DNA of 56,209 nt from a virus: positions 1-56,209 of IMG/VR virus record IMGVR_UViG_3300029998_000037; one strand, 5' to 3'. This document shows positions 4,319 to 19,541 of the stretch, one piece after another; the first letter of the stretch is position 1; each line of letters starts with the position of its first letter. The notes below the pieces were generated by a model. It did not search any database. It saw only the letters and a list, made by a program, of their open reading frames with translations, and had not been told where the DNA came from. The translations under genes were made by a program, and so were the position numbers.

Positions 4319-4345
4319 TATTTGTTAAACTTAAAAACAATTATT

Positions 4346-4456: not shown

Positions 4457-4480
4457 TTTATTTGATGTGAGTATTTTTAT

Positions 4481-4768: not shown

Positions 4769-4772
4769 AATC

Positions 4773-5015
4773 ATGGACAATACAACTAAATGGTATAATT
4801 CAAAATATGACTCTTATGGAAATTTGATTAATGAAATAAGAGATGAAATTAAGCCTGGAGACTTGGTTGAATATTGCTATGCATGTACTGATATAGTCAC
4901 AAAGAAAAATATTAAAATAAAAATACAAGGTATTTGGGACGGTTCAAAAGTAAAATTTAATGATAAAAAAAAGACTGTTGTAAAATGTAAAGAATGGCTA
5001 ACTCTAGTTAAATGA
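4773..5015 (+). CDS. Hypothetical small protein, SH3-like beta pattern
   Basis: An 80-residue protein. I-K-P-G-D-L-V-E-Y-C in the middle followed by I-x-G-I-W-D-G-S-K-V-K-F resembles the small SH3-like beta barrels common in large phages, where a G-D-x-V turn precedes several strands. It ends with a basic tail. Its stop overlaps the next start (ATGA at 5012). Function unknown. Confidence 0.6.
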   Translation: MDNTTKWYNSKYDSYGNLINEIRDEIKPGDLVEYCYACTDIVTKKNIKIKIQGIWDGSKVKFNDKKKTVVKCKEWLTLVK

Positions 5016-5410
5016 AAAACATTCTGAAAAAAATAATATGTGGTGCTGAAATTACAACAATTGACGGTTTGGTAGAATGTTGTTTAAATAAATATAATTC
5101 AAAACCTTATGAAATTATTGATCGTGAATTGATTAAGACTTTAATTGAAATGGATATAATTGAATTTGAAAGTGGAAATTTTGAAACTCATGAGCGACAT
5201 TATAGACTAAATGATAAATTTGTATCCAGAGAAAATAATGTAAAAACTATTAAAATAGGTGCAATTTGGAAAGCAATATTAACAAATAATTGTCAATATA
5301 TTTCTTTACCAAAGCACAGTATGCAAATGGAAATTCAAAATTCTTTTTCAGAATTAAAAAATCAATTATTAAGAAAAGAAAAATTAAAAAAAATTAATGA
5401 AAACTTGTGA
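5012..5410 (+). CDS. Hypothetical protein with basic C-tail (R-K-x-K-L-K-K-I)
   Basis: A 132-residue protein with no recognised domain. The last residues R-K-E-K-L-K-K-I-N-E-N-L match a C-terminal tail seen in many otherwise unrelated small proteins of this window. The start overlaps the previous gene by ATGA; the end overlaps the next gene by 14 bases. The tight coupling suggests translation of the whole group as one unit. Confidence 0.65.
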   Translation: MKNILKKIICGAEITTIDGLVECCLNKYNSKPYEIIDRELIKTLIEMDIIEFESGNFETHERHYRLNDKFVSRENNVKTIKIGAIWKAILTNNCQYISLPKHSMQMEIQNSFSELKNQLLRKEKLKKINENL

Positions 5411-5702
5411 TGATTATTTAAAAGATAACGGTCTTAATATTTCTACTGGATTACTTTTTACCTGTAAAGATTATGATTTTATAATTAAAATAAATGATAC
5501 AAGCATTATTATCAATAAAGGTAGATTCAATAGAGAAGAATTATTAACAAAAAAAGATATTATAAATAGAATTTATGATCTACTTCAACTTTATAAAAAA
5601 AATAATCTTAAAGATATGAATATAAAAGAAATAGAAAATAAAATCCTTAGAAAAGAAAAATTAAAAAAAATACAAGAATATGGGTGTAATGAGTTGTCAT
5701 AG
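5397..5702 (+). CDS. Hypothetical protein with basic C-tail
   Basis: A 101-residue lysine- and isoleucine-rich protein. Near its end it carries L-R-K-E-K-L-K-K-I-Q-E, almost identical to the tail of the preceding protein although the rest of the two proteins differs. It begins 14 bases before the previous stop, and the following zinc protein begins before its own stop. No function can be assigned. Confidence 0.6.
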   Translation: MKTCDDYLKDNGLNISTGLLFTCKDYDFIIKINDTSIIINKGRFNREELLTKKDIINRIYDLLQLYKKNNLKDMNIKEIENKILRKEKLKKIQEYGCNELS

Positions 5703-5934
5703 AAAATGTTGCGAAAATATAATGTGTGATACATATATTGACGGTATTGGTTATGTGTGTAATGATTGTCAAACAGAATTTAAAGATTATTTAACTTCAA
5801 ATGGCATTATTCTTGAAACTGAAGGTACAATAAAGAGAGAATTAAAAAAATTTATGAAGTCTGAAAAAGATGAATATACTGAAGGTAAAAATATTAATGT
5901 TGATGCATTTTTTAAAGAATATAAAAAATATTAA
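5689..5934 (+). CDS. Small cysteine-rich (zinc-finger-like) protein
   Basis: Begins M-S-C-H-R-K-C-C-E-N-I-M-C and continues with Y-V-C-N-D-C, giving enough paired cysteines for one zinc site of the C4 type. The rest is a charged helix-rich tail. I chose ATG 5689 (14-base overlap with the preceding gene, a spacing seen elsewhere here); ATG 5680 in the same frame is possible. Zinc ribbons of this size in phages usually bind nucleic acid or a host protein. Substrate unknown. Confidence 0.6.
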   Translation: MSCHRKCCENIMCDTYIDGIGYVCNDCQTEFKDYLTSNGIILETEGTIKRELKKFMKSEKDEYTEGKNINVDAFFKEYKKY

Positions 5935-5948
5935 AGTTGAATATGGAC

Positions 5949-5979
5949 ACACATTATATAGTTATACTATATAATGTGT
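5949..5979. repeat. Perfect inverted repeat (14-bp stem, 3-base loop)
   Basis: ACACATTATATAGT (5949-5962) and its exact complement (5966-5979) are separated by TAT. There is no G+C-rich base and no T run after it, so it is a poor Rho-independent terminator. It is the first of two adjacent hairpins filling the gap between the zinc protein and the nucleotidyltransferase. Confidence 0.8.
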
Positions 5980-6021
5980 ATTTTGCATCATTATCATCAA
6001 CATTGATAATGATGCAAAATA
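5979..6021. repeat. Perfect inverted repeat (18-bp stem, 7-base loop)
   Basis: The arms 5979-5996 and 6004-6021 (core TTTTGCATCATTATCA and its complement) match without error around the loop TCAACAT. It directly abuts the previous inverted repeat. It may act as a processing site, transcription pause site or protein operator. Confidence 0.8.
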
Positions 6022-6042
6022 TCGTGATAATAATAAATAAAA

Positions 6043-6654
6043 ATGAATAACGCAGAACACATTTGTAATGAATTAGGATTAGATTATTCTAAAGTATTGA
6101 ACATTTATCCATATGGATCAAAAATATATGGTACCGCAGATGAATTTTCTGATAGTGATTATATTATTATTTTTAAATCTTCGTTGCTTCCAAGCGGTGC
6201 ATTTAGAGATAATGCTATATCATCAGATGATAGAGAAATTCAAGGTGTTTGTTACTCAAGATCAGGGTTTATTGATGCAATAAACAACTATGAAATTGGC
6301 GCATTAGAATGCATTTTCTTACCAGAAGATAAGATTATTCAAAAGAAAATGAATTTTGGAATCACAAAATATAATGATAAAGAACTATCAAAAAAAATTA
6401 TACAAAAAGCATCAGCTAGTTGGCATTTTGCAAATTTAGCATATAAAGATGAAAATATGGAATCTTGTGCTAAAAATGTTTTTCATGCGCTAAGAATTTT
6501 AGATTTTGGTATTCAGATCAAAAAAAATAAAACAATTGTTGATTATTCTAGTATGAATGAAACAAAAAGCGAAATAATGAATAATTTTAATTATTTCAAT
6601 CCATATGATTATTATAATTTATTCTTAAAATTAAGTGAAGAAATTAAAAAATGA
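6043..6654 (+). CDS. Nucleotidyltransferase (RlaP-like, DNA polymerase beta superfamily)
   Basis: A 203-residue protein. Residues 24-43 read Y-G-S-K-I-Y-G-T, then S-D-S-D-Y-I-I-I-F. These are the G-S and D-x-D metal-binding motifs of polymerase-beta-type nucleotidyltransferases. The arrangement and the helical C-terminal half resemble the phage and RNA-repair RlaP group. It likely transfers a nucleotide to an RNA or small molecule using two metals. An RNA ligase lies 1.5 kb downstream on the same strand, which fits a role in repairing RNAs cut by host defences. Its stop overlaps the next gene (ATGA). Confidence 0.8.
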   Translation: MNNAEHICNELGLDYSKVLNIYPYGSKIYGTADEFSDSDYIIIFKSSLLPSGAFRDNAISSDDREIQGVCYSRSGFIDAINNYEIGALECIFLPEDKIIQKKMNFGITKYNDKELSKKIIQKASASWHFANLAYKDENMESCAKNVFHALRILDFGIQIKKNKTIVDYSSMNETKSEIMNNFNYFNPYDYYNLFLKLSEEIKK

Positions 6655-6872
6655 AAAGTAATAAAGTTGGCCCATTTGTGTTAAAACATAAAGAAACTGG
6701 ATTATATTTTACTCATGAAAATGACGTTGAAAATATTGAACATGCTGACAAATTTAAAATAACAACTTATGCTTATTTCTTTTTCGGTAAAAGGGTTTTA
6801 GAGTATAAGGACGTACCTTTTAATGAAGAAAAACTGAAAATTATAAGGAAAAATAAATTGAAAGAATTATGA
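6651..6872 (+). CDS. Hypothetical small protein with short basic C-tail
   Basis: A 73-residue protein ending I-R-K-N-K-L-K-E-L, a shortened form of the common C-terminal tail. The first half (F-V-L-K-H-K-E-T-G-L-Y-F) resembles a beta hairpin. ATGA overlaps exist at both ends, placing it in an operon between the nucleotidyltransferase and the cysteine-rich protein. No known family is recognised. Confidence 0.6.
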   Translation: MKSNKVGPFVLKHKETGLYFTHENDVENIEHADKFKITTYAYFFFGKRVLEYKDVPFNEEKLKIIRKNKLKEL

Positions 6873-7201
6873 AAGAATTATGTGATTGCGGGAAAGTTGC
6901 ATCTTGGTGTTATCTTCCTGGATTTTCTGATGGGTCTCCTTATTTTTGTGATGACTGTGTGCATCGTGGATGTTCTTGTAATCATAGATATGTTAATGTC
7001 AATGCTTATCATCCGCCATTAGATGAGCCAGAACTACCAACTGAAGAAGATCACCCAATAAAATGGAAGATGGCTGGGATATTGAGTAACAATTTATATT
7101 ATTTTCATAGAATAAAAAAACCTCAAGTTGAGGTTTTTTTATTTATTTTCTCTATTCTTACCAAGATGATATCCATCACAATATATGCATTTATATACTG
7201 A
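6869..7201 (+). CDS. Cysteine-rich zinc-binding phage protein, probably shortened by a real stop at 7089
   Basis: Begins with C-D-C-G-K-V-A-S-W and later F-C-D-D-C-V-H-R-G-C-S-C, a zinc-binding pattern I recognise from small conserved phage proteins. As read, the frame runs through the terminator at 7114-7140 and into antisense of the next gene, which is implausible. One more A in the run at about 7060-7063 would switch the end to I-K-M-E-D-G-W-D-I-E and stop just before the terminator. The given C-terminus (from about residue 66) is therefore doubtful. Confidence 0.6.
   Translation: MKELCDCGKVASWCYLPGFSDGSPYFCDDCVHRGCSCNHRYVNVNAYHPPLDEPELPTEEDHPIKWKMAGILSNNLYYFHRIKKPQVEVFLFIFSILTKMISITIYAFIY
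7114..7140. terminator. Bidirectional Rho-independent terminator
   Basis: AAAAAACCTCAA-GTTGAGGTTTTTTT forms a short stem with A and T runs on both sides. It separates converging genes that end near 7089 or 7201 (plus) and 7139 (minus). Confidence 0.85.
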
Positions 7202-7417
7202 GAAATGTTTATTCATTTTTTTAGCCATACTTTCTGCAGCTTTATTTGCAGTCTCCTTAGTATTATACATCACCTTTAACTTACCATCTTCTCTCTGGTG
7301 ACTTCTAATACTAAATAGTCCCATAGCGTTACCTGTAATAAAGAAGTTCTTAAAAGCTCTATTTAATGGTAATTGTTCTTTAAGAGCAAGATATAAATTT
7401 TTAAGTTTTATTTTCAT
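7139..7417 (-). CDS. Small conserved phage protein with C-x-x-C-x-x-x-H-x-G ending
   Basis: A 92-residue basic protein. It ends with C-I-Y-C-D-G-Y-H-L-G-K, a small zinc-knuckle-like motif familiar from phage proteins of this length, and its centre contains S-I-R-S-H-Q-R-E-D-G-K. It is a lone minus-strand gene that converges on the terminator. Probably nucleic-acid binding; no experimental function is known to me. Confidence 0.65.
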   Translation of the reverse strand: MKIKLKNLYLALKEQLPLNRAFKNFFITGNAMGLFSIRSHQREDGKLKVMYNTKETANKAAESMAKKMNKHFSVYKCIYCDGYHLGKNRENK

Positions 7418-7501
7418 TTTTCATTTTTAACAAAAATAATAAAAATATTTTATAATTCAAATTATTTCAAATTTATTATTTGTTTATATTAAATTTTTTT
7501 G

Positions 7502-7509
7502 TACTTTTG
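7502..7509 (+). promoter_or_regulatory. Bacteroidota-type promoter
   Basis: TACTTTTG at 7502-7509 with TTTG at 7479-7482, nineteen bases upstream. It drives the operon that starts at 7545. Confidence 0.65.
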
Positions 7510-7544
7510 TCTCATCATTAAATGAATTTTAATTTTTTATAATT

Positions 7545-7793
7545 ATGGAACTTAAATACGAACTTGATAAAGAAAGATTAAATTTACTCACGTCTAAAGT
7601 AAATAGAAGCAAGAATCAAGAGCAATTTCTTTTTAATTTAGTTAATGGCGATTTTGAAAAATTGCTACAACTTGAAATGCAATTATATAATTGCTTTTTT
7701 TTCTATTGTCCTGGTGATATCAATGATGTCGAAAAGATTATAAATATGGTTCCTAAAAAGAATTATTTAGTTCTTAAAAAGTCTGATTTTTAA
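7545..7793 (+). CDS. Hypothetical helical protein
   Basis: An 82-residue protein, predicted mostly helical in the first half (L-N-L-L-T-S-K-V-N-R-S-K-N-Q-E-Q), with an aromatic patch (C-F-F-F-Y-C). It is the first gene after the promoter at 7502. No family is recognised and no catalytic motif seen. Confidence 0.6.
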   Translation: MELKYELDKERLNLLTSKVNRSKNQEQFLFNLVNGDFEKLLQLEMQLYNCFFFYCPGDINDVEKIINMVPKKNYLVLKKSDF

Positions 7794-7808
7794 TAAAACA
7801 ACTCAAAA

Positions 7809-8168
7809 ATGAACGAACATATACTATGTGCAGCTATTTGGGTAAATGACCAAATTAAGCATAAACAACAGCCAATTAATATTGAAATTGGATTTGTTAT
7901 TTGTGGTAGAAGGCATAATAATTGTTATCAAACTATTACAGATTTAAAAGGTGATTCAAATGAATATTTCAAAAGCATCAATATGTCTGATGATGAATAT
8001 AGAAAGCATCAAGGCTTTATAACTTCATTAGATAGATTTGTTGGTAGACAAGAAGCCTGGGAAATTGCTAAAAAAAATAACCAAATTAAATTTGGTTTAC
8101 TATCATCCGAAAATGATGAAGATTCAATTTTAATAAGTGAAAACTTATATATGGATTATGATGATTAA
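7809..8168 (+). CDS. Conserved phage protein of unknown function (G-R-R-H-N-N-C motif)
   Basis: A 119-residue protein. It contains C-A-A-I-W-V-N-D, then N-I-E-I-G-F-V-I-C-G-R-R-H-N-N-C, then T-S-L-D-R-F-V-G-R-Q-E-A, and ends with I-S-E-N-L-Y. I recognise this order of motifs from many phage and prophage proteins annotated only as hypothetical. The conserved Cys, Arg and His residues suggest an active site or metal site. It lies 15 bases behind the preceding gene and 17 before the RNA ligase. Confidence 0.65.
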   Translation: MNEHILCAAIWVNDQIKHKQQPINIEIGFVICGRRHNNCYQTITDLKGDSNEYFKSINMSDDEYRKHQGFITSLDRFVGRQEAWEIAKKNNQIKFGLLSSENDEDSILISENLYMDYDD

Positions 8169-8185
8169 ATTATTAAAATTTTAAT

Positions 8186-8860
8186 ATGAAACATTACGAT
8201 AGTTTCGAAAATATAAAATATGACCAACTTTTGTTAGGCGAAGAAATCTGGGCATCAAATAAAATTGATGGTCAGAATTTTTGCGCTAAATATTCACCAA
8301 AGCAAAAAGAATTCACAATGTTTGGTTCTAAAACACAAAATGTGGATGAAACAAGTGAGCAGTTTGGTAAAGCAGTGCAATATTTCAAACTAAATATGAC
8401 AGCAACAATCAAAAAAATTATAATAGATAATTCAAAAAAAGGTGGAGTATTTACTGGCATTGAAGAAATTACAATATTTTGTGAATGGTACGGTGAAAAT
8501 ACTTTTAGTGGATTTCATATTCCTGGTGAAGAATTAAAATTGTGCTTGATTGATATATTTCTTAAAAAGAAAGGTTACATTGAACCAAAAATATTTTATA
8601 AACTCTTTGATGGATACAGTAATATTGAAGTGCCAGAACTCATATATAGTGGCAAACTAACAAAAGATTTCATCAATTCTATTGTAAATAATGACTGGAC
8701 TAAGCCAAATTGTTTATATCCTAATGTTAAAGAAGGTGTCGTTTGTAAACGTTCAACTTTAATGAAGGGTCAAAGAATGCCTAAAGCAAAAATAAAAACA
8801 GGATGGTGGTTAAATAAATTAACTGAACTTTATCCTGATAGATGGAAGGAATTAGAATAA
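8186..8860 (+). CDS. RNA ligase (Rnl2-like)
   Basis: A 224-residue protein with the nucleotidyltransferase motifs of ATP-dependent RNA ligases: motif I K-I-D-G-Q-N-F with predicted adenylated Lys26, a central I-F-C-E-W-Y-G-E-N (motif III region), E-G-V-V-C-K-R (motif IV), and K-A-K-I-K-T near the end (motif V). The length fits a ligase catalytic domain without a large C-terminal module. It likely seals RNA breaks, for example tRNA cut by host anticodon nucleases. The nucleotidyltransferase at 6043 may belong to the same repair route. The stop overlaps the next start as TAATG. Confidence 0.85.
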   Translation: MKHYDSFENIKYDQLLLGEEIWASNKIDGQNFCAKYSPKQKEFTMFGSKTQNVDETSEQFGKAVQYFKLNMTATIKKIIIDNSKKGGVFTGIEEITIFCEWYGENTFSGFHIPGEELKLCLIDIFLKKKGYIEPKIFYKLFDGYSNIEVPELIYSGKLTKDFINSIVNNDWTKPNCLYPNVKEGVVCKRSTLMKGQRMPKAKIKTGWWLNKLTELYPDRWKELE

Positions 8861-9153
8861 TGGAAATTATAAATATTATATTTGAATTAAAAAGTTTTAG
8901 TTGGGCTAATGGTCTATATATAATTGTCAGTTATGATGATGATGGTACTACATATAATTTATGTAAAATTAATGATGGAATACCAGAACTTTATGATGAT
9001 GGTAGATTTATTATAAGTTGTACTGGCACAAAAAATCCAGGAATAACAAAAACAAATTTAATATATGATACTAAAAGAAAAATGGTAGTAGAAAATAAAA
9101 AATATAGAAGACTTGAAAAATTAATAAAAATAAAAGAAAAATATGAAAAATAA
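8860..9153 (+). CDS. Hypothetical protein with basic C-tail
   Basis: A 97-residue protein starting M-E-I-I-N-I-I-F at ATG 8860, which overlaps the RNA ligase stop by one base; an upstream in-frame ATG at 8842 would overlap more and is less likely. The centre is beta-rich (Y-I-I-V-S-Y-D-D-D-G-T-T-Y). It ends R-R-L-E-K-L-I-K-I-K-E-K-Y, the window's common C-tail. The next small gene starts directly at its stop. Unknown function. Confidence 0.6.
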   Translation: MEIINIIFELKSFSWANGLYIIVSYDDDGTTYNLCKINDGIPELYDDGRFIISCTGTKNPGITKTNLIYDTKRKMVVENKKYRRLEKLIKIKEKYEK

Positions 9154-9279
9154 ATGTTAGATTTGAAAGAACTCGAAATATTATTAGATAATGCTCTTGA
9201 AAAAGAAACTTTTGAAAGTTTGCTTGCTTGGTTGTTAAGTCAAAGAAAAACTGATGATAAGAAAAAAACTGACGAATGA
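9154..9279 (+). CDS. Very small helical acidic-basic protein
   Basis: A 41-residue frame beginning M-L-D-L-K-E-L-E-I-L-L at 9154, immediately after the previous stop, and ending in a charged K-K-K-T-D-E. It is predicted to be a single amphipathic helix (L-E-K-E-T-F-E-S-L-L-A-W-L-L). The tight spacing and coding-like composition support it, but it is short and unrecognised. Confidence 0.5.
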   Translation: MLDLKELEILLDNALEKETFESLLAWLLSQRKTDDKKKTDE

Positions 9280-9313
9280 ATGAATAATTACAAAATTTAT
9301 ATATAAAAATATT

Positions 9314-10210
9314 ATGGATAGAAAAATATTTATATATGGATTAAAAAATTTAGGCTCAGATGAATTTAGATATATTGGTAAAACTTGTCGTCCTTTGAAT
9401 AGATTAAAAGAACATTTAAAAGAAAAAATAAGATTATTTTCATATCATAAACTTAATTGGATTCGTTTGTCACAAGAACAAAATATAGAAATTGTTTTTG
9501 AAATTATTGAAGAATGCACCATATATAATTGGGAAGAAAGGGAAATATATTGGATTAATTTTTATAAAGAAAATGGTCATAGATTAACTAATTTATTGAT
9601 TGGTGGGCGTAGTCCACAAATGATTTTATATAAATTAACATATGATGAAGCAAAGATTATTTCAAGAAGTTTAAATATAAAAACAACATTAAATTGGAGA
9701 TTATTATCAAAATATAAAAAAATGCCGAATGAATTACCAAAAAGACCAGATGAATATTATAAATATAGCGGATGGGTTAGTTGGTCAGATTGGTTAGGTA
9801 CGGAAATTGTTTCAAATAAGAATAAAATATTTTTACAATATGAAGATGCTAAAAATTTTGTAAAAAAATTAAATTTAGGTAGTAATTTGGAATGGACTAT
9901 ATATTGTAATTCAGGCGAAAAACCAAATAACATACCTTCAGCACCAAATATTGAATATAAAAATATAGGATGGATAAATTGGCAAGATTGGCTAGGTTAT
10001 GATAAAAATAGAAAAAGAAAAAATAATAAAGTTAATTATTTCACATACGATCAATCAAAATTATATTTAAAAGATAAAAACTTAAAAACATATAGAGATT
10101 GGGTAAAATTTTGTAAAAATGATAAACCAAATGAAATACCAAGTAATCCTTGGATTTTTTATAAAGAATGGAAAAATATTAAAGATTTTTTAAATTACGA
10201 AAATGAATAA
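9314..10210 (+). CDS. GIY-YIG endonuclease fused to three integrase-type repeats
   Basis: A 298-residue protein. The GIY-YIG core is at the start (F-I-Y-G-L, R-Y-I-G-K-T near residue 20). Three copies of a roughly 60-residue unit follow: Y-x-x-A-K or Y-x-x-S-K, then L-x-W or Y-R-D-W, then P-N-E-L-P or N-I-P-S, and G-W-x-x-W-x-D-W-L-G, the last copy degenerate. The unit matches the phage-integrase repeat (INT_rpt) pattern, thought to bind DNA. It is most likely a mobile homing endonuclease. It sits alone between two unrelated small genes. Confidence 0.82.
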   Translation: MDRKIFIYGLKNLGSDEFRYIGKTCRPLNRLKEHLKEKIRLFSYHKLNWIRLSQEQNIEIVFEIIEECTIYNWEEREIYWINFYKENGHRLTNLLIGGRSPQMILYKLTYDEAKIISRSLNIKTTLNWRLLSKYKKMPNELPKRPDEYYKYSGWVSWSDWLGTEIVSNKNKIFLQYEDAKNFVKKLNLGSNLEWTIYCNSGEKPNNIPSAPNIEYKNIGWINWQDWLGYDKNRKRKNNKVNYFTYDQSKLYLKDKNLKTYRDWVKFCKNDKPNEIPSNPWIFYKEWKNIKDFLNYENE

Positions 10211-10228
10211 AAAATAATTATAATTATT

Positions 10229-10570
10229 ATGAAAGAAAAAAAATTACCAATTGAATTGTTAATATGCTCATGTCATAATACAGAGCATCAACTCATTCTA
10301 TTACATGAATATGAAGAAGAAATTAAAAAGGATGCTAATGGAAATGAAATGAGAGACGAATCTGGTAAATTAATATTTGATAAAAAGTATCCAATGTGTT
10401 ATGTACATATTCATCTTAATAAACATTCTTTTTTAGATAGACTTAAATATGGCATCAAATATATTTTAGGATATCAATGCCGTTATGGTGCCTTTGATGA
10501 ATTTATTTTTAATCCAGAAGATGCACAAAAATTGCAACAATTAGTTGATCATTTAAATGAACAAATTTAA
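10229..10570 (+). CDS. Conserved hypothetical phage protein
   Basis: A 113-residue protein. Its start L-L-I-C-S-C-H-N-T-E-H-Q-L, the insert M-C-Y-V-H-I-H-L-N and F-D-E-F-I-F-N-P-E-D-A-Q-K-L form a pattern I associate with small conserved proteins of Bacteroidota and gut phages. It has Cys and His pairs that could bind a metal. It is the last gene before the promoter at 10604. No function is established. Confidence 0.65.
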   Translation: MKEKKLPIELLICSCHNTEHQLILLHEYEEEIKKDANGNEMRDESGKLIFDKKYPMCYVHIHLNKHSFLDRLKYGIKYILGYQCRYGAFDEFIFNPEDAQKLQQLVDHLNEQI

Positions 10571-10603
10571 TAAAATAAATTTGTTGGTCTCGTATAAAAA
10601 TAG

Positions 10604-10611
10604 TATCTTTG
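10604..10611 (+). promoter_or_regulatory. Bacteroidota-type promoter
   Basis: TATCTTTG at 10604-10611 with TTG at 10581-10583, twenty bases upstream; the gene starts at 10634. One of the clearest promoters in the window. Confidence 0.75.
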
Positions 10612-10633
10612 TTGTACACTTAAAAAGAATAAT

Positions 10634-10984
10634 ATGAACTATACAGAAATTAAAATGTTAGAGGGAAGTATCAAAAAAGAGCTTCAAAAGAGGTTTCCTT
10701 ATTCATCTACTAAAGTATCAACATTAGGCGGTGAAAATAAAGCAACCATTTTTTTAACTTTTAGTCTTGATAAGTCAAGCACTTGGTCTAATGGAATAAT
10801 GGAAAATAGCAGATATTTCATTATGAGTGTAACATATAAAGGGGAAGTTGAATGTGTTACAAAATCTATTAAAGAAGTAAATATTAGAAAATTCACTATT
10901 GAAAATTCTGAAAAATGCTTAACAAAAATTGCAAAAATTTTAGACGATATTAAAACAAAAGCAAATAAAAAAGTTTTAGCTTAA
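10634..10984 (+). CDS. Hypothetical protein
   Basis: A 116-residue protein, first gene after the promoter at 10604. It seems to be a helix (E-I-K-M-L-E-G-S-I-K-K-E-L-Q-K-R-F) followed by beta strands (I-F-L-T-F-S-L-D, F-I-M-S-V-T-Y-K) and a final helix ending K-A-N-K-K-V-L-A. No known domain is recognised. The cytochrome gene follows 17 bases later and may be co-transcribed. Confidence 0.65.
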   Translation: MNYTEIKMLEGSIKKELQKRFPYSSTKVSTLGGENKATIFLTFSLDKSSTWSNGIMENSRYFIMSVTYKGEVECVTKSIKEVNIRKFTIENSEKCLTKIAKILDDIKTKANKKVLA

Positions 10985-11001
10985 AAATAAAAAATCATAT
11001 T

Positions 11002-11460
11002 ATGAAAAAAGTTGTTTTCTTTTCTTTATTTTTTCTTTTCATTTGGATATCTTGGTTTGCTATATTTAAGAAACAGGAACAAGATATTAAAAAATCAAGC
11101 ACAATAGTATTAAAGGATAGTATTTACGAAATGCTTCCAATTACTCATGTAGAAATAAATGATACAAATCCTGATAAAATTTATTTGAGCCAAATTGTGA
11201 CTCTTAAAGAACTTAAAGATAAAAATTTATATAAAACAAATTGTAAATTTTGTCATGGTGAAGATGGTAAAGGTGACGGTGTTAAAGCAAGATTAAATCC
11301 AACTATTTGCCCATTTGATTTAACAAAAGAAACTCACAATGATAAATATATTTATTATGTATTATTAAATGGTGAAAATAATATGCCATCTTATAATAAA
11401 AAATTGGACGACAATAAAATAAAAATATTAATAGTTTATATCAAGAAATTTAAAAGATGA
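11002..11460 (+). CDS. Membrane-anchored monoheme c-type cytochrome
   Basis: A 152-residue protein. Residues 4-22 are a hydrophobic N-terminal signal or anchor. Residues 81-85 are C-K-F-C-H, the heme c attachment motif, followed by G-E-D-G-K-G-D-G as in class I cytochromes. Met128 in N-N-M-P-S-Y is a good candidate for the distal heme ligand. The domain of about 80 residues is a normal size. It would act on the periplasmic face and depend on the host heme attachment machinery. Codon use is as A+T rich as neighbours, so it is not a fresh arrival. The next gene overlaps by ATGA. Confidence 0.85.
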   Translation: MKKVVFFSLFFLFIWISWFAIFKKQEQDIKKSSTIVLKDSIYEMLPITHVEINDTNPDKIYLSQIVTLKELKDKNLYKTNCKFCHGEDGKGDGVKARLNPTICPFDLTKETHNDKYIYYVLLNGENNMPSYNKKLDDNKIKILIVYIKKFKR

Positions 11461-11780
11461 AAAATAAAACAATAGTAGTTTTTGATTGGTCAGATATTAA
11501 ATCTGAGATATGTAAAGAAATGGGCATTAAAGAAAACCTTTTCAGAGATTATCATAACGTGATTGGTGGTGATTATAAAGATTTATGGCATGAATGGCTA
11601 AACTATTTTAATTCAGAATTAACCAATGATTCAATTCAGTCTGTTGATTTGGGCGAAAGTGCTGAATGTAAAATTGAATGGGTTAAGGAAGATGGTAAAG
11701 ATTGGCTTGAGCCATTTATTAATGCGGTATATAAAGTTTGGGAAGATAATGAAATTGAATATGTAAGTTACTCATGGTAA
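11457..11780 (+). CDS. Conserved hypothetical phage protein
   Basis: A 107-residue acidic protein with many aromatics: I-V-V-F-D-W-S-D near the start, R-D-Y-H-N-V-I-G-G-D-Y-K-D-L-W-H-E-W-L-N-Y in the middle, and a C-terminal Y-V-S-Y-S-W. ATGA overlap with the cytochrome gene. I do not recognise a family or active site. Its conservation-like, ordered composition supports a real folded protein. Confidence 0.65.
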   Translation: MKNKTIVVFDWSDIKSEICKEMGIKENLFRDYHNVIGGDYKDLWHEWLNYFNSELTNDSIQSVDLGESAECKIEWVKEDGKDWLEPFINAVYKVWEDNEIEYVSYSW

Positions 11781-11791
11781 TATAAAAAATA

Positions 11792-12260
11792 ATGGATATA
11801 GGATCAGGGAAAGAGTACCCATCAAATGCTCTAAGTAATTTTGCACCACATCCATTTATTTTTGATGGGGTTGAGATTAATTCAATGGAAGGATTTTTAC
11901 AAAGCTTGAAATTTAAAAACTTTGATATGCAGAAAGAAGTCTGTAAATTGGTTGGGCTCAAAGCAAAATTTCGTGGTAAACCTAAAAAATGGTACACAGA
12001 TCAAAAATTATATTGGAATAGTGTATGATAGGTCATCACAAGAATATCAGGATCTATTGGATAGAGCATTTGATGCACTATCAGAAAATAAGTCATTTCA
12101 AAAAGCACTTATTGCATCTGGCAAATCTGTTTTAACACATGAAATAGGCAAGTCAAAAGAAAGCGAAACAGTTTTAACAAAAAGAGAATTTATTTCTAGA
12201 TTAAACAAAATTCGTGAAAGATTATTAAAAGAAAAAAGTGGATTTAAATTTGCAGAATAA
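11792..12260 (+). pseudogene. NADAR (YbiA-like) domain protein split by a frameshift
   Basis: The first part (11792-12028, 78 residues) contains Y-P-S-N-A-L-S-N-F-A-P-H-P-F and S-M-E-G-F-L-Q-S-L-K-F, the start of the NADAR/YbiA fold. It stops at TGA-TAG after L-Y-W-N-S-V. The matching second half continues in the +1 frame to 12260, with D-R-S-S-Q-E-Y-Q, L-L-D-R-A-F-D-A-L and T-H-E-I-G-K-S. NADAR enzymes remove ADP-ribose adducts from guanine or process ADP-ribose derivatives. Either the gene is broken, or an indel error is present, or a +1 frameshift before TGA restores it. Confidence 0.75.
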
Positions 12261-12272
12261 AACAAAATAAAA

Positions 12273-12506
12273 ATGGAAATATTTGAAACAACATATAAAA
12301 TAAAACTCATTAGTTCTAAAAATGTACGGGCGCATTTTAATAAATGTGTGCAAGAATTATGCGATAAGAATGATTGTAAATGTGAAATACAAATTAATGC
12401 AAAATGGTTTTGGGTTTTCGATCATTTTATTATCAAAATTATTGGCAATAAAATTAATATAGAAATAATTGAAACTCAATTAAAACTTTTAACTACTTTA
12501 ATTTAA
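12273..12506 (+). CDS. Hypothetical small protein
   Basis: A 77-residue protein with C-V-Q-E-L-C-D-K-N-D-C-K-C (four cysteines close together) in the first half and beta-like strands after it. It follows the NADAR frame by 12 bases and ends before the converging HD gene. The cysteines could form a metal site, but the spacing does not match a family I know. Confidence 0.55.
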   Translation: MEIFETTYKIKLISSKNVRAHFNKCVQELCDKNDCKCEIQINAKWFWVFDHFIIKIIGNKINIEIIETQLKLLTTLI

Positions 12507-12538
12507 TCCAAGTTTTAGTTTTTCTTCTTTTAACCATT

Positions 12539-13243
12539 TCATTCTATTAATTGGTTTAATACTGAATAATCATTTCTATTTTTCTCAAGAATATCAATCA
12601 TTGTATATAGATGATTATTTTCATTATTATTAAATAACTGTTTATTATCTTCAGTATATTTTATAAATTTCCAGCTGTCCTCTATTAAATTGTTTCTAAC
12701 ATCAATTACTCGTTTAACATGGTCTTCCAAATAACGAACATTAGCAGGTTTCTTAGACCAGGTTGAAGTTAAAAATTTAAGTCTATCCGGCATAAAGCCA
12801 TCTCTACCGCCATGATAGCAACAAGGTCTCATTATTTCTAATACATCAGCATCTTGTACAATTTGCTTATCTACATCCATCCATCCAGTTTTTTCTATAA
12901 AATGTGACACATAATCTGAATAGTTATCATCGTAACCTTTTGATAATAAATAATTATAACAATTTTTTGAACTGTCACTTTCCCAAATATCCATACCATT
13001 GCCTTGTCTACCAGAATCATGAAATGCTATAGCATATCTTATTCCTGTGAATTCTATATCTCTATCAAATTCATTAAAATAGAATCTGGACATAAATTCG
13101 GCAAATAAGACTGCACGTGAGATATGAAGTCTACCATGAATACCATATTTATCAAATGTGTTCTCATGATGCTGATAAAGTGGAAGTATATTTTCCGATA
13201 AATCTTTTGTAAATTTATCCCAATCTTCAATGTTTTTAATCAT
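12539..13243 (-). CDS. HD-domain phosphohydrolase
   Basis: A 234-residue protein. H36/H40 (I-H-G-R-L-H-I-S-R), H75-D76 (A-F-H-D-S-G-R-Q) and a later Q-D-A-D-V-L-E-I form the metal-binding H...HD...D pattern of HD-superfamily phosphohydrolases. The family hydrolyses nucleotides or cyclic nucleotides; the substrate here is unknown. The start overlaps the stop of the small upstream gene by ATGA. Immediately after its stop a 14-codon fragment (M-K-W-L-K-E-E-K) follows in another frame, possibly a former C-terminus. Confidence 0.82.
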   Translation of the reverse strand: MIKNIEDWDKFTKDLSENILPLYQHHENTFDKYGIHGRLHISRAVLFAEFMSRFYFNEFDRDIEFTGIRYAIAFHDSGRQGNGMDIWESDSSKNCYNYLLSKGYDDNYSDYVSHFIEKTGWMDVDKQIVQDADVLEIMRPCCYHGGRDGFMPDRLKFLTSTWSKKPANVRYLEDHVKRVIDVRNNLIEDSWKFIKYTEDNKQLFNNNENNHLYTMIDILEKNRNDYSVLNQLIE

Positions 13244-13407
13244 AATGTGTTATATTTTTTTACAAGTAATTCAATTTCTTTTAATTCGTCTGGTGATAAT
13301 TTACTTAATTCCAAATCAATAATACTTTTAATTTCATCAATTTTTTCTTTGCTCCATATATATTCAGGATCTGTTAAAACTTCGTTTTTACATTTATTAT
13401 TCTTCAT
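13240..13407 (-). CDS. Small helical protein upstream of HD gene
   Basis: A 55-residue protein, M-K-N-N-K-C-K-N-E-V-L to K-K-Y-N-T-L, acidic and predicted helical (I-D-E-I-K-S-I-I-D-L-E-L-S-K-L). Start at 13407 overlaps the previous gene end by 11 bases; stop overlaps the HD start as ATGA. The bases before the HD start, AAATATAACACATTATG, again resemble the AAATATAA element seen before minus-strand starts. Confidence 0.6.
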   Translation of the reverse strand: MKNNKCKNEVLTDPEYIWSKEKIDEIKSIIDLELSKLSPDELKEIELLVKKYNTL

Positions 13408-14149
13408 CTTCAATCTCTATTTTAATATTATTTTCATAATTACAACATTTCTTAAAATCATCATTGCTTATCTGACCTTTAATATTATACGACACATCCC
13501 TTATCCAAATAGGGGTTAGCATATTTTTTAAAAATTTATCTAATGTTTTTAGCGCATAACGTGTATATGAATTTTGATATAAATTACCATATTTTGATTC
13601 TATTTCTTTATAATCAATATTAAGTATTTCTTTATTTCTCTTACATATAAATTCATACCATTTATAGCTAAACTTTTCATTAAATTCTTCTTGAGTTATT
13701 TCATTTGGAATTTTAAATTCTAAACAGAAATCTTTAAACCAAATATTTGATAATTTTTTTTCATTTTCGTTCCATTCACCATATTCTGAAAGTAAGTTAT
13801 TTCTCTTTTTTTTCCATTCCCTTCTTAATTTCACAATGTAAGGACTATGAATTTCAGGATTACCAATTTTTCCAAAAATCATAAATTCGACCCAGCAACT
13901 ATTAAGTCTAATACCAATTTCAAAATTTTTAACTTTAAAATTCCACGTACCAGCCTCTTTACCGTCATCAAACATAGTTGGCGGACCAAAACGTTTTGAG
14001 AGATAAAAAAAAGTTGAAAAAAATATATCTTCCGTAAATGATGCTCCTATATAATTCTTTGAAATATTATAACCAAGATTTTTCGCTATCACCTGTTTTA
14101 TCAAATCATTTCCTTGAAAAATATTTGTCATTGAATTGTTTTCTTTCAT
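13397..14149 (-). CDS. Hypothetical protein, 250 residues
   Basis: A well-formed coding region without a recognised domain. Residues around 50-100 contain F-G-P-P-T-M-F-D-D-G-K-E-A-G-T-W-N-F and E-I-G-I-R-L-N-S-C-W-V-E-F-M, a beta-rich section, followed by a highly charged helical region. The C-terminus is acidic (E-I-E-D-E-E). It is the largest gene in this minus-strand operon of HD-type genes. Function unknown. Confidence 0.65.
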   Translation of the reverse strand: MKENNSMTNIFQGNDLIKQVIAKNLGYNISKNYIGASFTEDIFFSTFFYLSKRFGPPTMFDDGKEAGTWNFKVKNFEIGIRLNSCWVEFMIFGKIGNPEIHSPYIVKLRREWKKKRNNLLSEYGEWNENEKKLSNIWFKDFCLEFKIPNEITQEEFNEKFSYKWYEFICKRNKEILNIDYKEIESKYGNLYQNSYTRYALKTLDKFLKNMLTPIWIRDVSYNIKGQISNDDFKKCCNYENNIKIEIEDEE

Positions 14150-14151
14150 TT

Positions 14152-14310
14152 TTAATTATTTTCTATTCTATTTAAATATAATTCGCCAAGATTCCAAATT
14201 AATGTAAATATACTGATAAATAAAAGTAAATTTGAAAGTATTCCATTTGCAAAAATACTAAGTATTAAAAATACCAATACTATAATCCACCAAAGTTTTA
14301 TTTTATTCAT
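14152..14310 (-). CDS. Small two-helix membrane protein
   Basis: A 52-residue protein beginning M-N-K-I-K-L-W-W-I-I at ATG 14310. Hydrophobic stretches cover about residues 6-25 and 27-43, with a short acidic tail (R-I-E-N-N). The frame is open further upstream to 14463, but that part crosses the plus-strand promoter at 14388 and is low complexity, so the short form is preferred. It lies two bases from the next minus-strand gene. Confidence 0.55.
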   Translation of the reverse strand: MNKIKLWWIIVLVFLILSIFANGILSNLLLFISIFTLIWNLGELYLNRIENN

Positions 14311-14387
14311 CTTATTTATATTTAAAACAAATATACATAAAAGTTTTAGATAAAAAAAAATAATTTTTTTTATTAAATTTTTTTTAA

Positions 14388-14395
14388 TACTTTTG
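14388..14395 (+). promoter_or_regulatory. Bacteroidota-type promoter
   Basis: TACTTTTG at 14388-14395, 22 bases before the ATG at 14418; TATAAATA also lies between (about 14408), which resembles a T4-type late promoter. Either could drive the operon to 16.5 kb. Confidence 0.55.
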
Positions 14396-14417
14396 ATTAA
14401 ATTATTATATAAATAGT

Positions 14418-15005
14418 ATGGCAAACAGATATTATAACGATGTATGGGAAATTGAAGATTCATATCGTAAGAAAAAATATGAAGAGTTATTTATATTATC
14501 TTTACAAAATGATATGACAAAATGGACAGAAGAATTAAAAATAGATAGAACTATATATAAAAGTCCAGATTATAATGGTTATAAATTTACTATAGAATTT
14601 AGAATAAATTTTGCATTTTCTTATATATCATATGGCACAAATATACCACCAATTGCAAATCATCTTTCTGAATTAATAACTGATAATTTTTCTGTGGAAA
14701 TAAAAACATTAACTACTAAATTGAGAGAAACTATATATAGTCCTGATATTTACGAAATTGAAAAATTAATAGGCAAACAACATGATAGAAAAGAAAAACT
14801 TGTTTTTCTTGATCTTGAACAAATGAAAGAGATTATCGAAGATACATATCAAGATTGGTTAAAAAATGATACTGAAATTGTCGCTAAAATGATTTCTAGA
14901 ATTATATATTCTTATCGTAAAAAAGAAGAATTTTTCAAATTATGGACAGATAAATTTGAAAATGTTAAATTAATTAATAATGAATTAAAAAAATTAAAAG
15001 GATAA
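14418..15005 (+). CDS. Hypothetical helical protein, 195 residues
   Basis: Mostly helical by composition, with no recognised catalytic motif. Contains Y-K-F-T-I-E-F-R-I-N-F-A-F-S-Y-I-S-Y-G-T in the middle and ends in N-N-E-L-K-K-L-K-G. First gene of a four- or five-gene plus-strand operon including the deoxyribonucleotidase. No assignment possible. Confidence 0.65.
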   Translation: MANRYYNDVWEIEDSYRKKKYEELFILSLQNDMTKWTEELKIDRTIYKSPDYNGYKFTIEFRINFAFSYISYGTNIPPIANHLSELITDNFSVEIKTLTTKLRETIYSPDIYEIEKLIGKQHDRKEKLVFLDLEQMKEIIEDTYQDWLKNDTEIVAKMISRIIYSYRKKEEFFKLWTDKFENVKLINNELKKLKG

Positions 15006-15010
15006 ATTTT

Positions 15011-15217
15011 ATGAATGATGATAAAGATTGGATTGATTTAAATTATGATGGTGCTAAATTTTTACCATATAATTATAGTAGTTATACACAATTATATAAT
15101 AAATACTATATAAGAAAAAATGTAACAAACGAAGATACCTTAGAACGAATACCTATTGCTGAAATTGAAAAATTTTTACGTAGAAAAAAACTAGAAAAAT
15201 TAAAAGATATCGAATGA
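15011..15217 (+). CDS. Small protein with basic C-tail
   Basis: A 68-residue protein. The first part is tyrosine-rich (Y-N-Y-S-S-Y-T-Q-L-Y-N-K-Y-Y), and the end is L-R-R-K-K-L-E-K-L-K-D-I-E, the common C-tail of plus-strand small proteins. It is followed by the nucleotidase with an ATGA overlap at 15214. No family is recognised. Confidence 0.6.
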   Translation: MNDDKDWIDLNYDGAKFLPYNYSSYTQLYNKYYIRKNVTNEDTLERIPIAEIEKFLRRKKLEKLKDIE

Positions 15218-15687
15218 GAACACTATTTATTGATATGGACGGTGTTATAGTTGACCTAAAAAAACACATAGAAGAATTTTTTGAAAAATATCCATATTTA
15301 TTTGACAAATATGAACATTGTCCAGATCATATACATGGCATATTTAGAAATCCTAAACCATATCCAGGTGCGATAGATGCAATTAATAAATTATATCTAT
15401 CTGGAAAATATGATATGTATATTGCAACAGCCGCGCCTTGGGGTAATCCTGATGCTGCAACAGATAAACGATATTGGATTGAAACATATTTTGGAAATAT
15501 GTTTCATAAAAGATTAATTCTAACTCATAGAAAAGATATGTTAAAAGGAGACATATTAATTGATGATAGAGAAAAAAATGGTGCCGGTGAATTTGAAGGT
15601 GAATTAATAAAATTTGGATATAATCATATTACAGATAGTATGAATGAATATCAAGACTGGAATGCTGTTTTAGAACATTTATTATGA
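15214..15687 (+). CDS. 5'(3')-deoxyribonucleotidase-like HAD phosphatase
   Basis: A 157-residue protein. The start F-I-D-M-D-G-V-I-V-D-L holds catalytic Asp7 and Asp9 of the HAD superfamily. I-A-T-A-A-P-W-G-N-P supplies the motif II Thr region, and I-L-I-D-D-R-E-K-N-G-A-G provides the motif IV acidic pair. Size and pattern match the NT5C family, which removes phosphate from deoxynucleoside monophosphates; phages use it in nucleotide metabolism. ATGA overlaps on both sides tie it into the operon. Confidence 0.85.
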   Translation: MRTLFIDMDGVIVDLKKHIEEFFEKYPYLFDKYEHCPDHIHGIFRNPKPYPGAIDAINKLYLSGKYDMYIATAAPWGNPDAATDKRYWIETYFGNMFHKRLILTHRKDMLKGDILIDDREKNGAGEFEGELIKFGYNHITDSMNEYQDWNAVLEHLL

Positions 15688-16316
15688 ACAAACCAAGAAA
15701 CCCAAAAATAACAAAAGAAGAAATAATAAATTGGTTTTGTAATTTATATAATTCATGTTATCCTGTTACACACAAAGATTATCCACAATCCATATTTATG
15801 TTTTATGATACACAATTTATTAGGAAAATAAAATTGTGTAAAATATCAGGATTACCAATTACTTTACCATCAAAGGTTACAGGGATTTGTTTATTTGAGC
15901 AAGATTGGAAAAACAATCGTTTTTATTATAAATACGATGAGGTGTATTATTTTTTATATAAAAATTATTCAACTACGCATAATAATATCAGCACATTTAT
16001 TAAAGATAGACTGAATGAATATGATAAATTAAATGTATTAGTACCTATTTATTGCGGTAACACAGTGAAATTAATATTAACAATACCTTGGCTGAGTGAA
16101 TATTATAAATTAAATGAATTGATGGTCATGGAAAGCACATTAATAGATTCAAATGAAGATGGTAAATTGGGTGTCTTAATACATAAATTGGCACCACATT
16201 ATAGATATAATATAAGAAATCATAAAATAAAAGAAATTTATAATATGAAAGTATTAACATTTGATTTTTTTAAAAAATTAAAGAATAAAATCTTAAAAAA
16301 ATTATATATAATATAA
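15684..16316 (+). CDS. Hypothetical protein, 210 residues
   Basis: Overlaps the nucleotidase by ATGA. Contains W-F-C-N-L-Y-N-S-C-Y-P-V-T-H near the start and a C-terminal basic segment F-D-F-F-K-K-L-K-N-K-I. Cys and aromatic residues are frequent. No motif of a known enzyme class is evident. Confidence 0.65.
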   Translation: MNKPRNPKITKEEIINWFCNLYNSCYPVTHKDYPQSIFMFYDTQFIRKIKLCKISGLPITLPSKVTGICLFEQDWKNNRFYYKYDEVYYFLYKNYSTTHNNISTFIKDRLNEYDKLNVLVPIYCGNTVKLILTIPWLSEYYKLNELMVMESTLIDSNEDGKLGVLIHKLAPHYRYNIRNHKIKEIYNMKVLTFDFFKKLKNKILKKLYII

Positions 16317-16324
16317 AAACTAAT

Positions 16325-16477
16325 ATGAATATAAATTTAGAAATTGAAAAATTAAAAAATAAAATAAAATTATTAGAAAAGGAAAATAAAAAATTAAAAG
16401 AAAAAATAGAAGGTTATATAATATATGAAGGAGAGTTAAAATCACAATTAACTACTGAAAAATGTAATAAATATTAA
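16325..16477 (+). CDS. Short coiled-coil protein
   Basis: A 50-residue frame from ATG 16325. Residues 4-30 show clean heptad spacing (L-E-I-E-K-L-K-N-K-I-K-L-L-E-K-E), predicting a coiled coil, followed by G-Y-I-I-Y-E-G. It sits eight bases after the previous gene and converges on the minus-strand zinc protein, overlapping by four bases. Confidence 0.5.
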   Translation: MNINLEIEKLKNKIKLLEKENKKLKEKIEGYIIYEGELKSQLTTEKCNKY

Positions 16478-16620
16478 TCTTTATCATCTTTTTTATCATC
16501 TTTTTTAATTATTGGAAATATTTCAATTCCCTTACCTTTACATTTTTGACATGTTATTTTAGTATTACTATCATATCCTCTAGCATCACATAAATTACAA
16601 ATTTTATAAGTATAATCCAT
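16474..16620 (-). CDS. Small DnaJ-type zinc-finger protein
   Basis: A 48-residue protein. C-N-L-C-D-A-R-G-Y and C-Q-K-C-K-G-K-G are two C-x-x-C-x-x-x-G repeats, as in one zinc site of the DnaJ cysteine-rich domain. An acidic-basic tail follows (K-K-D-D-K-K-D-D-K-D). Start ATG 16620 overlaps the previous stop as TAATG. It is the last gene of the first packaging-head cluster but lacks the head peptide. Likely a small scaffold or nucleic-acid binder. Confidence 0.65.
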   Translation of the reverse strand: MDYTYKICNLCDARGYDSNTKITCQKCKGKGIEIFPIIKKDDKKDDKD

Positions 16621-17129
16621 TATATATTATATTTTTCCATATTTTTTAGCATTTCTAATTTTTTAATTAATATTCCTTCTGTATAATTATATATTCTAAC
16701 GCTAAACTTAGGTTGAGATTTAGGGTTATTAAACCTTACAAATAATGTGTGCCACTTATCATCATTATCAATTTTAACTAAAAGATCAGAATCATGATAT
16801 CTTGGATTTTCAAATATAACATCTTTACACACACCAATAATACTATGAGGTTTAGAATGTGGAAAATCCTCAAAAAAATCTGAACTATAGCACCAAGTGC
16901 ATTGAAATGCTATTTTTTTATTTATAATTAATTCTTTAACTAAATTATAAAAATCAATACCATATGTTTGACAATCTTCTTTTAAACTTTTTAAATTAAA
17001 TGATTTATATAATTCATCTTTAACCTTAGCAAATTCATCTCTAATTGGTTGCTCACGATGTATAAATGATGGTCCAACCCAACCTACAAGATGCTTTTTA
17101 AATGCCTCATATAATTGTATATGTTTCAT
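16620..17129 (-). CDS. Head-peptide protein (M-K-H-I-Q-L-Y-E start, K-Y-N-I end)
   Basis: A 169-residue protein. It starts with the M-K-x-I-x-x-[FY]-E peptide and ends E-K-Y-N-I, both shared by other minus-strand proteins here. In between, L-V-K-E-L-I-I-N-K-K-I-A-F-Q and a beta-rich section to I-G-V-C-K-D-V-I-F resemble the next gene and two other cluster members, so they form a paralogous family. The N-terminal peptide resembles the T4 capsid-targeting sequence. No enzyme motif is visible. Confidence 0.7.
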   Translation of the reverse strand: MKHIQLYEAFKKHLVGWVGPSFIHREQPIRDEFAKVKDELYKSFNLKSLKEDCQTYGIDFYNLVKELIINKKIAFQCTWCYSSDFFEDFPHSKPHSIIGVCKDVIFENPRYHDSDLLVKIDNDDKWHTLFVRFNNPKSQPKFSVRIYNYTEGILIKKLEMLKNMEKYNI

Positions 17130-17647
17130 ATATTATATTTTTCAGTTTCCTTTTTTAATTTAACTAATTTATGTAATGGTTTATTATCAGCATCATAATC
17201 ATAAATTGTAACTATACTATTATTTTTTATTAAAAAATCACCACAACCATTTAACGTTCCTTGGTACTCCACAAATTTTTTATCTATTAAAATTTGTGGA
17301 GTTTTTAAATTGACATGAAGCCAAAAATCATCTTTATAAAAAAAAATATTAACATTAATAACTTTACCTTTTCTAATTGGATTTTTTTGAATTCTATTCT
17401 CATTTTGAAATATAATAGTTTTATTTAATAGAATTTCTTTAATAAAATCAATAACATCTATATTATATTTACTTTTAAGTTCAGTTTTTTCATCCATGAT
17501 CATCGTATCAACATCAATATCTAAATATTTCATAACATCATTAATAAAGAATTGATCCTTACCAAGCATATAATCATTTTTTACATTTTCAAATATCTGA
17601 TTATTCAGATTTGAACTTTGTTCAAAGATTTTAAATTTTGTTATCAT
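17126..17647 (-). CDS. Head-peptide protein (M-I-T-K-F-K-I-F-E start, K-Y-N-I end)
   Basis: A 173-residue paralogue of the preceding protein. F-I-K-E-I-L-L-N-K-T-I-I-F-Q aligns with its L-V-K-E-L-I-I-N-K segment, followed by G-K-V-I-N-V-N-I-F-F. It ends E-K-Y-N-I, and its stop overlaps the next start in AATATATGAAA. Probably delivered or sorted with the others; function unknown. Confidence 0.7.
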   Translation of the reverse strand: MITKFKIFEQSSNLNNQIFENVKNDYMLGKDQFFINDVMKYLDIDVDTMIMDEKTELKSKYNIDVIDFIKEILLNKTIIFQNENRIQKNPIRKGKVINVNIFFYKDDFWLHVNLKTPQILIDKKFVEYQGTLNGCGDFLIKNNSIVTIYDYDADNKPLHKLVKLKKETEKYNI

Positions 17648-17871: not shown

Positions 17872-17905
17872 AATAAACTTATATTTTTTAAACCATATGG
17901 TTATT

Positions 17906-19490: not shown

Positions 19491-19541
19491 ATTCTATATA
19501 TAATTTTTCAAAACTAAAATAAATATTTATCTATAATTGAA

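What the first reader, a model, noticed from the sequence alone, without database searches (positions are those of the whole stretch)
11002..11460. Phage-encoded membrane c-type cytochrome
C-K-F-C-H, G-E-D-G-K-G-D-G, a distal Met128 candidate and an N-terminal anchor make a clear monoheme cytochrome c. Phages carrying cytochrome c genes are very rare. It needs the host heme ligation system and so must act in the periplasm. Its codon use is like that of the phage, so it is long resident. It might reroute respiration during infection.
Basis: partly seen in the sequence, partly recalled or inferred. Interest (0 to 1): 0.78.

Follow-up and report, generated by a model that had tools for sequence, protein, structure and literature searches.

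The report
Huge-phage membrane-anchored cytochrome c
This stretch of a very large bacterial virus carries a real gene for cytochrome c, the small heme protein that cells use to pass electrons when they respire, and related huge viruses carry the same phage type of it, which suggests that they help run or redirect the infected cell's respiration.

Summary
Window 11002-11460 (+) encodes a 152-residue monoheme c-type cytochrome: Pfam Cytochrome_CBB3 E 1.6e-11, heme motif CKFCH, Met128, predicted cytochrome c fold matching solved cytochromes at Z about 12, and an N-terminal hydrophobic anchor. It is phage DNA, not a host join. A second IMG/VR contig from another dataset repeats window 2042-20112 at 99.9%. 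A T4-type gene (GP30.3) lies 0.3 kb downstream. 21 window ORFs, on both sides of the gene, have homologues in LR756501, the 735-kb phage predicted to infect Bacteroidetes. LR756501 and a 155-kb IMG/VR phage contig carry the same cytochrome (51-52% identical). The three form a tight phage-only clade (100/99), closer to each other than to any bacterial relative found (at most 46%). Among 50,697 deposited phage records only LR756501/LR756503 has one, but IMG/VR holds other phage cytochromes c. No heme-ligation or oxidase genes were found in the phage records checked, so the protein should mature and work with host partners. Best reading: a membrane-tethered periplasmic electron carrier, an auxiliary metabolic gene for host respiration. 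That function is inferred, not shown. Viral electron-transport genes are known; this huge-phage family appears undescribed in the papers searched.

The parts
11002..11460 (+). Monoheme c-type cytochrome, 152 aa, phage-specific subfamily
   Evidence: Pfam PF13442 1.6e-11; AF2 model matches cytochromes c at Z 12; clade with LR756501 and a 155-kb phage contig 100/99
11014..11067 (+). N-terminal hydrophobic segment (about residues 5-22), probable uncleaved inner-membrane anchor; no lipobox Cys
   Evidence: sequence; helix in model. The two phage homologues have lipobox-like N termini instead (..LGSC....GFSC..)
11242..11256 (+). Heme c attachment motif C-K-F-C-H (C81-H85)
   Evidence: sequence; Cys, Cys, His invariant in A3; only CXXCH in the window's ORFs of at least 60 aa
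11308..11310 (+). Cys103 codon, in the clade signature [IL]-C-P-[FHY]-D-L; present in all three phage-clade members, not at this place in the Bacteroidota relatives aligned
11383..11385 (+). Met128 codon, probable distal axial heme ligand (motif MP)
   Evidence: invariant in A3; aligns with the Met of the solved cytochrome 7o38
10634..10984 (+). Upstream ORF, 116 aa, no Pfam family; 17 bases before the cytochrome, probably the same transcript
   Evidence: spacing; no Pfam match
10581..10611 (+). Bacteroidota-type promoter-like site (TTG..TATCTTTG) 23 bases before ORF 10634
   Evidence: the motif is not enriched across the window, so suggestive only
11457..11780 (+). Downstream ORF, 107 aa, overlapping the cytochrome stop by 4 bases; unknown function
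11792..12260 (+). T4-family GP30.3 gene (PF08010) in two frames, a phage marker 0.3 kb downstream of the cytochrome
   Evidence: Pfam 2.3e-26 and 1.6e-22 for the two halves; about 65% nt identity to Tevenvirinae

Best explanation
The gene is an auxiliary metabolic gene of a huge, probably Bacteroidota-infecting phage. The host Sec pathway is expected to insert the protein by its N-terminal anchor and the host cytochrome c maturation system to attach one heme to C81/C84 (inferred). The His85/Met128 cytochrome would then sit on the periplasmic face of the inner membrane and shuttle single electrons between host respiratory complexes, most likely from the quinol-oxidising complex (alternative complex III in many Bacteroidota) to a terminal oxidase or a periplasmic reductase. 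The benefit would be continued proton-motive force and ATP, or controlled electron flow, through a costly infection. Shown: the gene, its phage location, the predicted fold and heme-binding residues, and conservation in related huge phages. Inferred: heme loading, topology, partners, direction of electron flow and benefit.
For: Family and fold. Heme ligands invariant in three phages whose other domain residues differ at roughly half of positions, so function is probably kept. All three members start with a membrane anchor or lipobox-like N terminus. Phage location: contig repeated in an independent assembly, GP30.3 gene close by, 21 window ORFs with homologues in LR756501. No Ccm/CcsA or COX1 family in the phage records checked, so host partners would be needed. 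Electron-transport AMGs are a recognised phage strategy (PMC5082946, PMC8115048, PMC8190135). Other phage lineages carry similar small exported cytochromes. The LR756501 size class is predicted to infect Bacteroidetes, the window carries a TonB-dependent receptor 57% identical to a Bacteroidota one, and the nearest bacterial cytochrome relatives are mostly Bacteroidota.
Against: No expression, heme or redox data. No neighbouring gene in the window points to respiration; the flanking ORFs are of unknown function. The anchor differs from the lipoprotein-like form of its relatives. The Pfam family name (cbb3 subunit III) does not tell the partner. Host assignment of this contig is indirect.
Confidence: 0.6

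Rival explanations
1. The phage cytochrome is an electron diverter: it binds a host donor or acceptor but passes electrons elsewhere, or blocks them, to throttle host respiration or limit oxidative stress.
For: The phage clade has its own signature (CKFCHG, KAR, [IL]CP-x-DL, YYV) and a long stem, as if adapted to a particular partner; anchoring would hold it at one complex.
Against: All canonical electron-transfer residues are kept, and nothing indicates an inhibitory partner.
Confidence: 0.17
2. A heme protein kept for a non-respiratory envelope role: peroxide defence with a host peroxidase, superinfection exclusion, or another surface function.
For: Al-Shayeb et al. note huge-phage proteins predicted at the bacterial membrane or surface that may affect infection by other phages (PMC7162821). 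In LR756501 the gene stands alone on the strand opposite to its neighbours, close to a terminase-like gene.
Against: A cytochrome c fold with intact His/Met ligation is most simply an electron carrier, and no peroxidase-like neighbour was seen.
Confidence: 0.15
3. A recently captured host gene carried by chance, without function for the phage.
For: Bacteroidota have many similar small cytochromes.
Against: Closest relatives are in other huge phages (51-52%), not bacteria (at most 46%); the clade is 100/99 on a long stem; composition is phage-like; the reading frame is intact in two assemblies.
Confidence: 0.05
4. Assembly artefact: host DNA joined to phage DNA near 11 kb.
For: None found.
Against: An 18-kb contig from another dataset is co-linear at 99.9% through the site; phage homologues lie on both sides; the gene family is also in LR756501.
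Confidence: 0.01

Closest known systems
Cytochrome c homologue in the 735-kb phage LR756501 (Al-Shayeb et al. 2020, PMC7162821)
   Same: Same subfamily: 50.6% identity over residues 63-151, same CKFCHG..KAR..CPxDL..YYV..MP signature, exported-type N terminus
   Different: Lipobox-like N terminus instead of a transmembrane anchor; different gene neighbourhood; the record has no annotation and the paper's main text does not mention a cytochrome
Small periplasmic monoheme cytochromes of Bacteroidota (for example L005, L006, L009)
   Same: One CXXCH, GKGDG, conserved Met, C-terminal helix; up to 43-46% identity in the domain
   Different: Several examples stand beside a roughly 400-aa exported protein and a second small cytochrome (the 400-aa protein has no Pfam match); they lack the phage signature and Cys103
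ActE, monoheme cytochrome subunit of alternative complex III (6lod_E, 6btm_E)
   Same: Fold (Z 11.9 and 9.6) and membrane attachment
   Different: ActE works as a subunit of a complex (established knowledge); about 21-22% identity
Viral electron-transport AMGs: SoxD with cytochrome c motifs (PMC8190135), ccoP and cydAB listed as viral AMGs (PMC12713726), cbb3 subunit I sequences from the Indian Ocean viral fraction (PMC3474794)
   Same: Phage- or virus-linked respiratory or electron-carrying genes
   Different: SoxD is a sulfur-oxidation subunit; the oxidase genes are not small carriers; the ccoP entry was not traced to a sequence (no mention in the main text of the paper opened)
Other phage cytochromes c found here: T4-like group (L086 and relatives), a second set of contigs (L089, L090, L126, L133), tandem pair on a 303-kb contig (L213)
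   Same: Small exported-type monoheme cytochromes on phage contigs
   Different: Separate from the window's clade in the trees; one shared origin is not excluded (p-AU 0.318)

Membership tests
Monoheme class I c-type cytochrome (PF13442/PF00034) | Profile match above the curated cut-off | tested here: met
   44.8 bits vs 27 and 26.5 vs 21.3
Monoheme class I c-type cytochrome (PF13442/PF00034) | Single CXXCH heme motif and distal Met | tested here: met
   C81, C84, H85 and M128 invariant in 23 sequences
Monoheme class I c-type cytochrome (PF13442/PF00034) | Cytochrome c fold | tested here: met
   AF2 model, Z 12.0 and rmsd 1.7 over 77 residues to 7o38
Monoheme class I c-type cytochrome (PF13442/PF00034) | Export to the periplasm | tested here: inconclusive
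   Hydrophobic N terminus seen in sequence and model; no signal-peptide predictor at hand
Monoheme class I c-type cytochrome (PF13442/PF00034) | Covalently bound heme c | not testable with these tools
   needs expression and heme stain
CcoP (cbb3 oxidase subunit III) | NCBIfam equivalog TIGR00782 cut-off | tested here: not met
   35.6 bits vs 179.95
CcoP (cbb3 oxidase subunit III) | Two heme c sites; oxidase subunit I nearby | tested here: not met
   one CXXCH; no COX1 family match in the window
ActE of alternative complex III | Lipoprotein subunit encoded with the other act genes | tested here: not met
   no lipobox Cys in the N terminus; the neighbours scanned carry no act-like family
Huge phage related to LR756501 | Shared gene content | tested here: met
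   21 of 119 ORFs of at least 60 aa hit LR756501, including an MVP-like protein at 50% over 816 columns
Huge phage related to LR756501 (Mahaphage clade) | Placement in the terminase tree | not testable with these tools
   no terminase match in the 56-kb fragment
Phage auxiliary metabolic gene | Phage-encoded, with a host metabolic function that acts in infection | tested here: inconclusive
   phage location met; function in infection untested

The most novel reading that the evidence does not exclude
Huge phages keep their own, phage-adapted, membrane-tethered cytochrome c that plugs into a specific host respiratory complex and reroutes periplasmic electron flow in infection, a strategy reached more than once in unrelated large phages.
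Probability: 0.3. Interest if true: 0.8.

Novelty: new variant of a known kind. Interest (0 to 1): 0.6.

Why it matters
The best-known phage electron-transfer genes are the photosynthetic ones of cyanophages. A dedicated respiratory-type electron carrier kept by huge phages related to the 735-kb phage, with similar genes in T4-like and other large phages, would extend that idea to heterotrophic, respiring hosts. It makes a direct test possible: does a phage protein change oxygen use or proton-motive force in infected Bacteroidota?

Tried and rejected
Chimera at 11 kb: rejected. CcoP identity: rejected as an equivalog. Plasmid relatives: no match at 1e-3. PHROGs match for the cytochrome: none, nor for the LR756501 homologue; L086 gives a weak hit to phrog_16981, unknown function. 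Structural match among BFVD viral proteins: none significant. More members of the same subfamily in IMG/VR: further scans gave only the window's twin and the 155-kb contig. One origin of the phage cytochromes: neither shown nor rejected (p-AU 0.318). Bacteroidota-type promoter motif: not enriched in the window, so only weak evidence. Prior reports of a huge-phage cytochrome c: none found in the open-access library; Al-Shayeb's main text has no 'cytochrome'; supplements could not be read. Two early scripts failed on a file name.

Full report
OBSERVATION. Window 11002-11460 (+) is an intact 152-aa ORF. It matches Pfam Cytochrome_CBB3 at 1.6e-11 and Cytochrom_C at 1.7e-5, both above the curated cut-offs, and solved cytochromes c by sequence (best 7o38, 9.5e-10). 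C81, C84, H85 (in C-K-F-C-H) and Met128 are invariant in a 23-sequence alignment. It is the only window ORF of at least 60 aa with a CXXCH. The AlphaFold2 model has a confident domain (block means of pLDDT 83-93 over residues 71-150) and an N-terminal helix. VIA-align puts it at Z 12.1 to 9vr0, 12.0 to 7o38 and 11.9 to the ActE chain 6lod_E. Z near 12 alone could be modest for a helical protein, but here fold, sequence and ligands agree.

IT IS PHAGE DNA. The window is a whole IMG/VR virus record of 56,209 bases, classed linear, probably a fragment. Contig IMGVR_UViG_3300030943_000236 (L002) is co-linear with window 2042-20112 at 99.9%; it differs at about 16 aligned positions, none in the cytochrome, which is identical. 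A T4-family GP30.3 gene begins 0.3 kb downstream. An endolysin-type protein, an RNA ligase, an endonuclease VII-like protein and others match phage families. Of 119 window ORFs of at least 60 aa, 21 have tblastn matches in LR756501 and 7 in the 155-kb contig IMGVR_UViG_3300020048_000026, on both sides of 11 kb. Both genomes were searched as 20-kb pieces.

RELATIVES. LR756501 is taken to be the 735-kb genome of Al-Shayeb et al. from its length and origin; the paper calls the 735-kb genome complete, manually curated and circularized and predicts Bacteroidetes hosts for its genomes over 634 kb. The record carries the homologue at 614041-614457 (50.6% over 89 residues). The 155-kb contig carries another (52% over 88 residues), placed just before a phage-type DNA helicase gene, on a contig with a terminase match. 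The three share CKFCHG-x2-G-[KQ]-GDG-[VI]-KAR, [IL]-CP-[FHY]-DL and YYV motifs and form one clade at 100/99 on a stem of 1.08 changes per column. The best bacterial relatives found reach 43-46%. The genome scan was pattern-based and capped, and the Bacteroidota sample was 395 genomes, so a closer bacterial gene may exist.

OTHER PHAGE CYTOCHROMES. Tblastn with several cytochrome queries against 50,697 deposited phage records hit only LR756501 and its twin LR756503 (none for L126). A pattern scan of IMG/VR gave 68 stretches; about half hold a plausible cytochrome ORF, some of which look bacterial or were not examined. Clear phage cases: a group around L086, with TerL 69-80% identical, FtsZ-like 91-95% and portal beside it, whose TerL resembles T4-like TerLs; contigs such as L133, with a PhoH-like gene, and L126, with an endolysin; and a 303-kb contig with a terminase match and two cytochrome genes in tandem beside ORFs that read as NAMPT and PRPP synthetase (by eye). 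The L086/L126-type sequences form a separate clade (100/98) from the window's; a single phage origin is not rejected (p-AU 0.318).

MECHANISM. Absence of a Ccm/CcsA-type family and of COX1 in the records checked implies host maturation and host partners; most of these records are fragments, LR756501 is not. The N-terminal anchor here and the lipobox-like N termini in the relatives imply tethering in the periplasm (inference from sequence). The simplest function is a one-electron carrier between host complexes. Direction, partner and benefit are not shown; a diverter role fits the same sequence facts less simply. In the window the gene lies 17 bases after ORF 10634-10984 and overlaps ORF 11457-11780 by 4 bases, so co-transcription is likely. 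A Bacteroidota-type promoter-like site stands before ORF 10634, but that motif is not enriched overall.

NOVELTY. Phage- or virus-linked electron-transport genes are known: SoxD with cytochrome c motifs (PMC8190135), cbb3 oxidase sequences in a viral fraction (PMC3474794), ccoP and cydAB in a review's AMG table (PMC12713726). No description of a monoheme cytochrome c family in huge phages was found, within an open-access library and without supplements. Hence: new variant of a known kind.

Noticed in passing
28917-31328 (+): 803-aa major-vault-protein-like protein (PF11978 3.3e-27; PDB vault proteins 1.9e-12 over residues 441-722); LR756501 carries a 50% identical copy over 816 columns. No report of a phage vault protein turned up in two library searches.
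   Followed up: partly
16620-19490, 25609-27900, 40144-41928 (-) and elsewhere: Many small minus-strand proteins begin MKxIKxFE-like and end KYNI/KFNI/KYNV; a second set, mostly plus-strand, ends in RxEKLxKI-like motifs. Both occur in the 155-kb contig; the two C-terminal ones were not found in LR756501. They look like shared targeting tags.
   Followed up: partly
11792-12260 (+): GP30.3 (PF08010) split by a +1 shift at a UGA, the same in the second assembly; one ORF covers the match in the Tevenvirinae looked at. Pseudogene or programmed frameshift.
   Followed up: partly
45860-49135 (+): Full-length TonB-dependent receptor-like protein (OMP_b-brl_4, CarboxypepD_reg, Plug), 57% identical to one in a Bacteroidota genome.
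   Followed up: partly
2-1825 (-): RCC1-repeat protein (WGWGYNNxGQLGDN repeats) running off the contig end; matches phage RCC1 families.
   Followed up: no
L126 5089-5724 (-), L089 9976-10728 (-): Thioredoxin/AhpC-like proteins with lipobox-like N termini near the phage cytochrome c on both contigs; possible thiol reductase for cytochrome maturation.
   Followed up: partly
L213 2715-7625: 303-kb phage contig: two tandem cytochrome c genes next to ORFs that read as NAMPT and PRPP synthetase.
   Followed up: partly
34767-35339, 43911-45185, 51268-56209 (+): SIS-domain, glycosyltransferase, DegT aminotransferase and epimerase-like genes, as for surface sugar synthesis.
   Followed up: no
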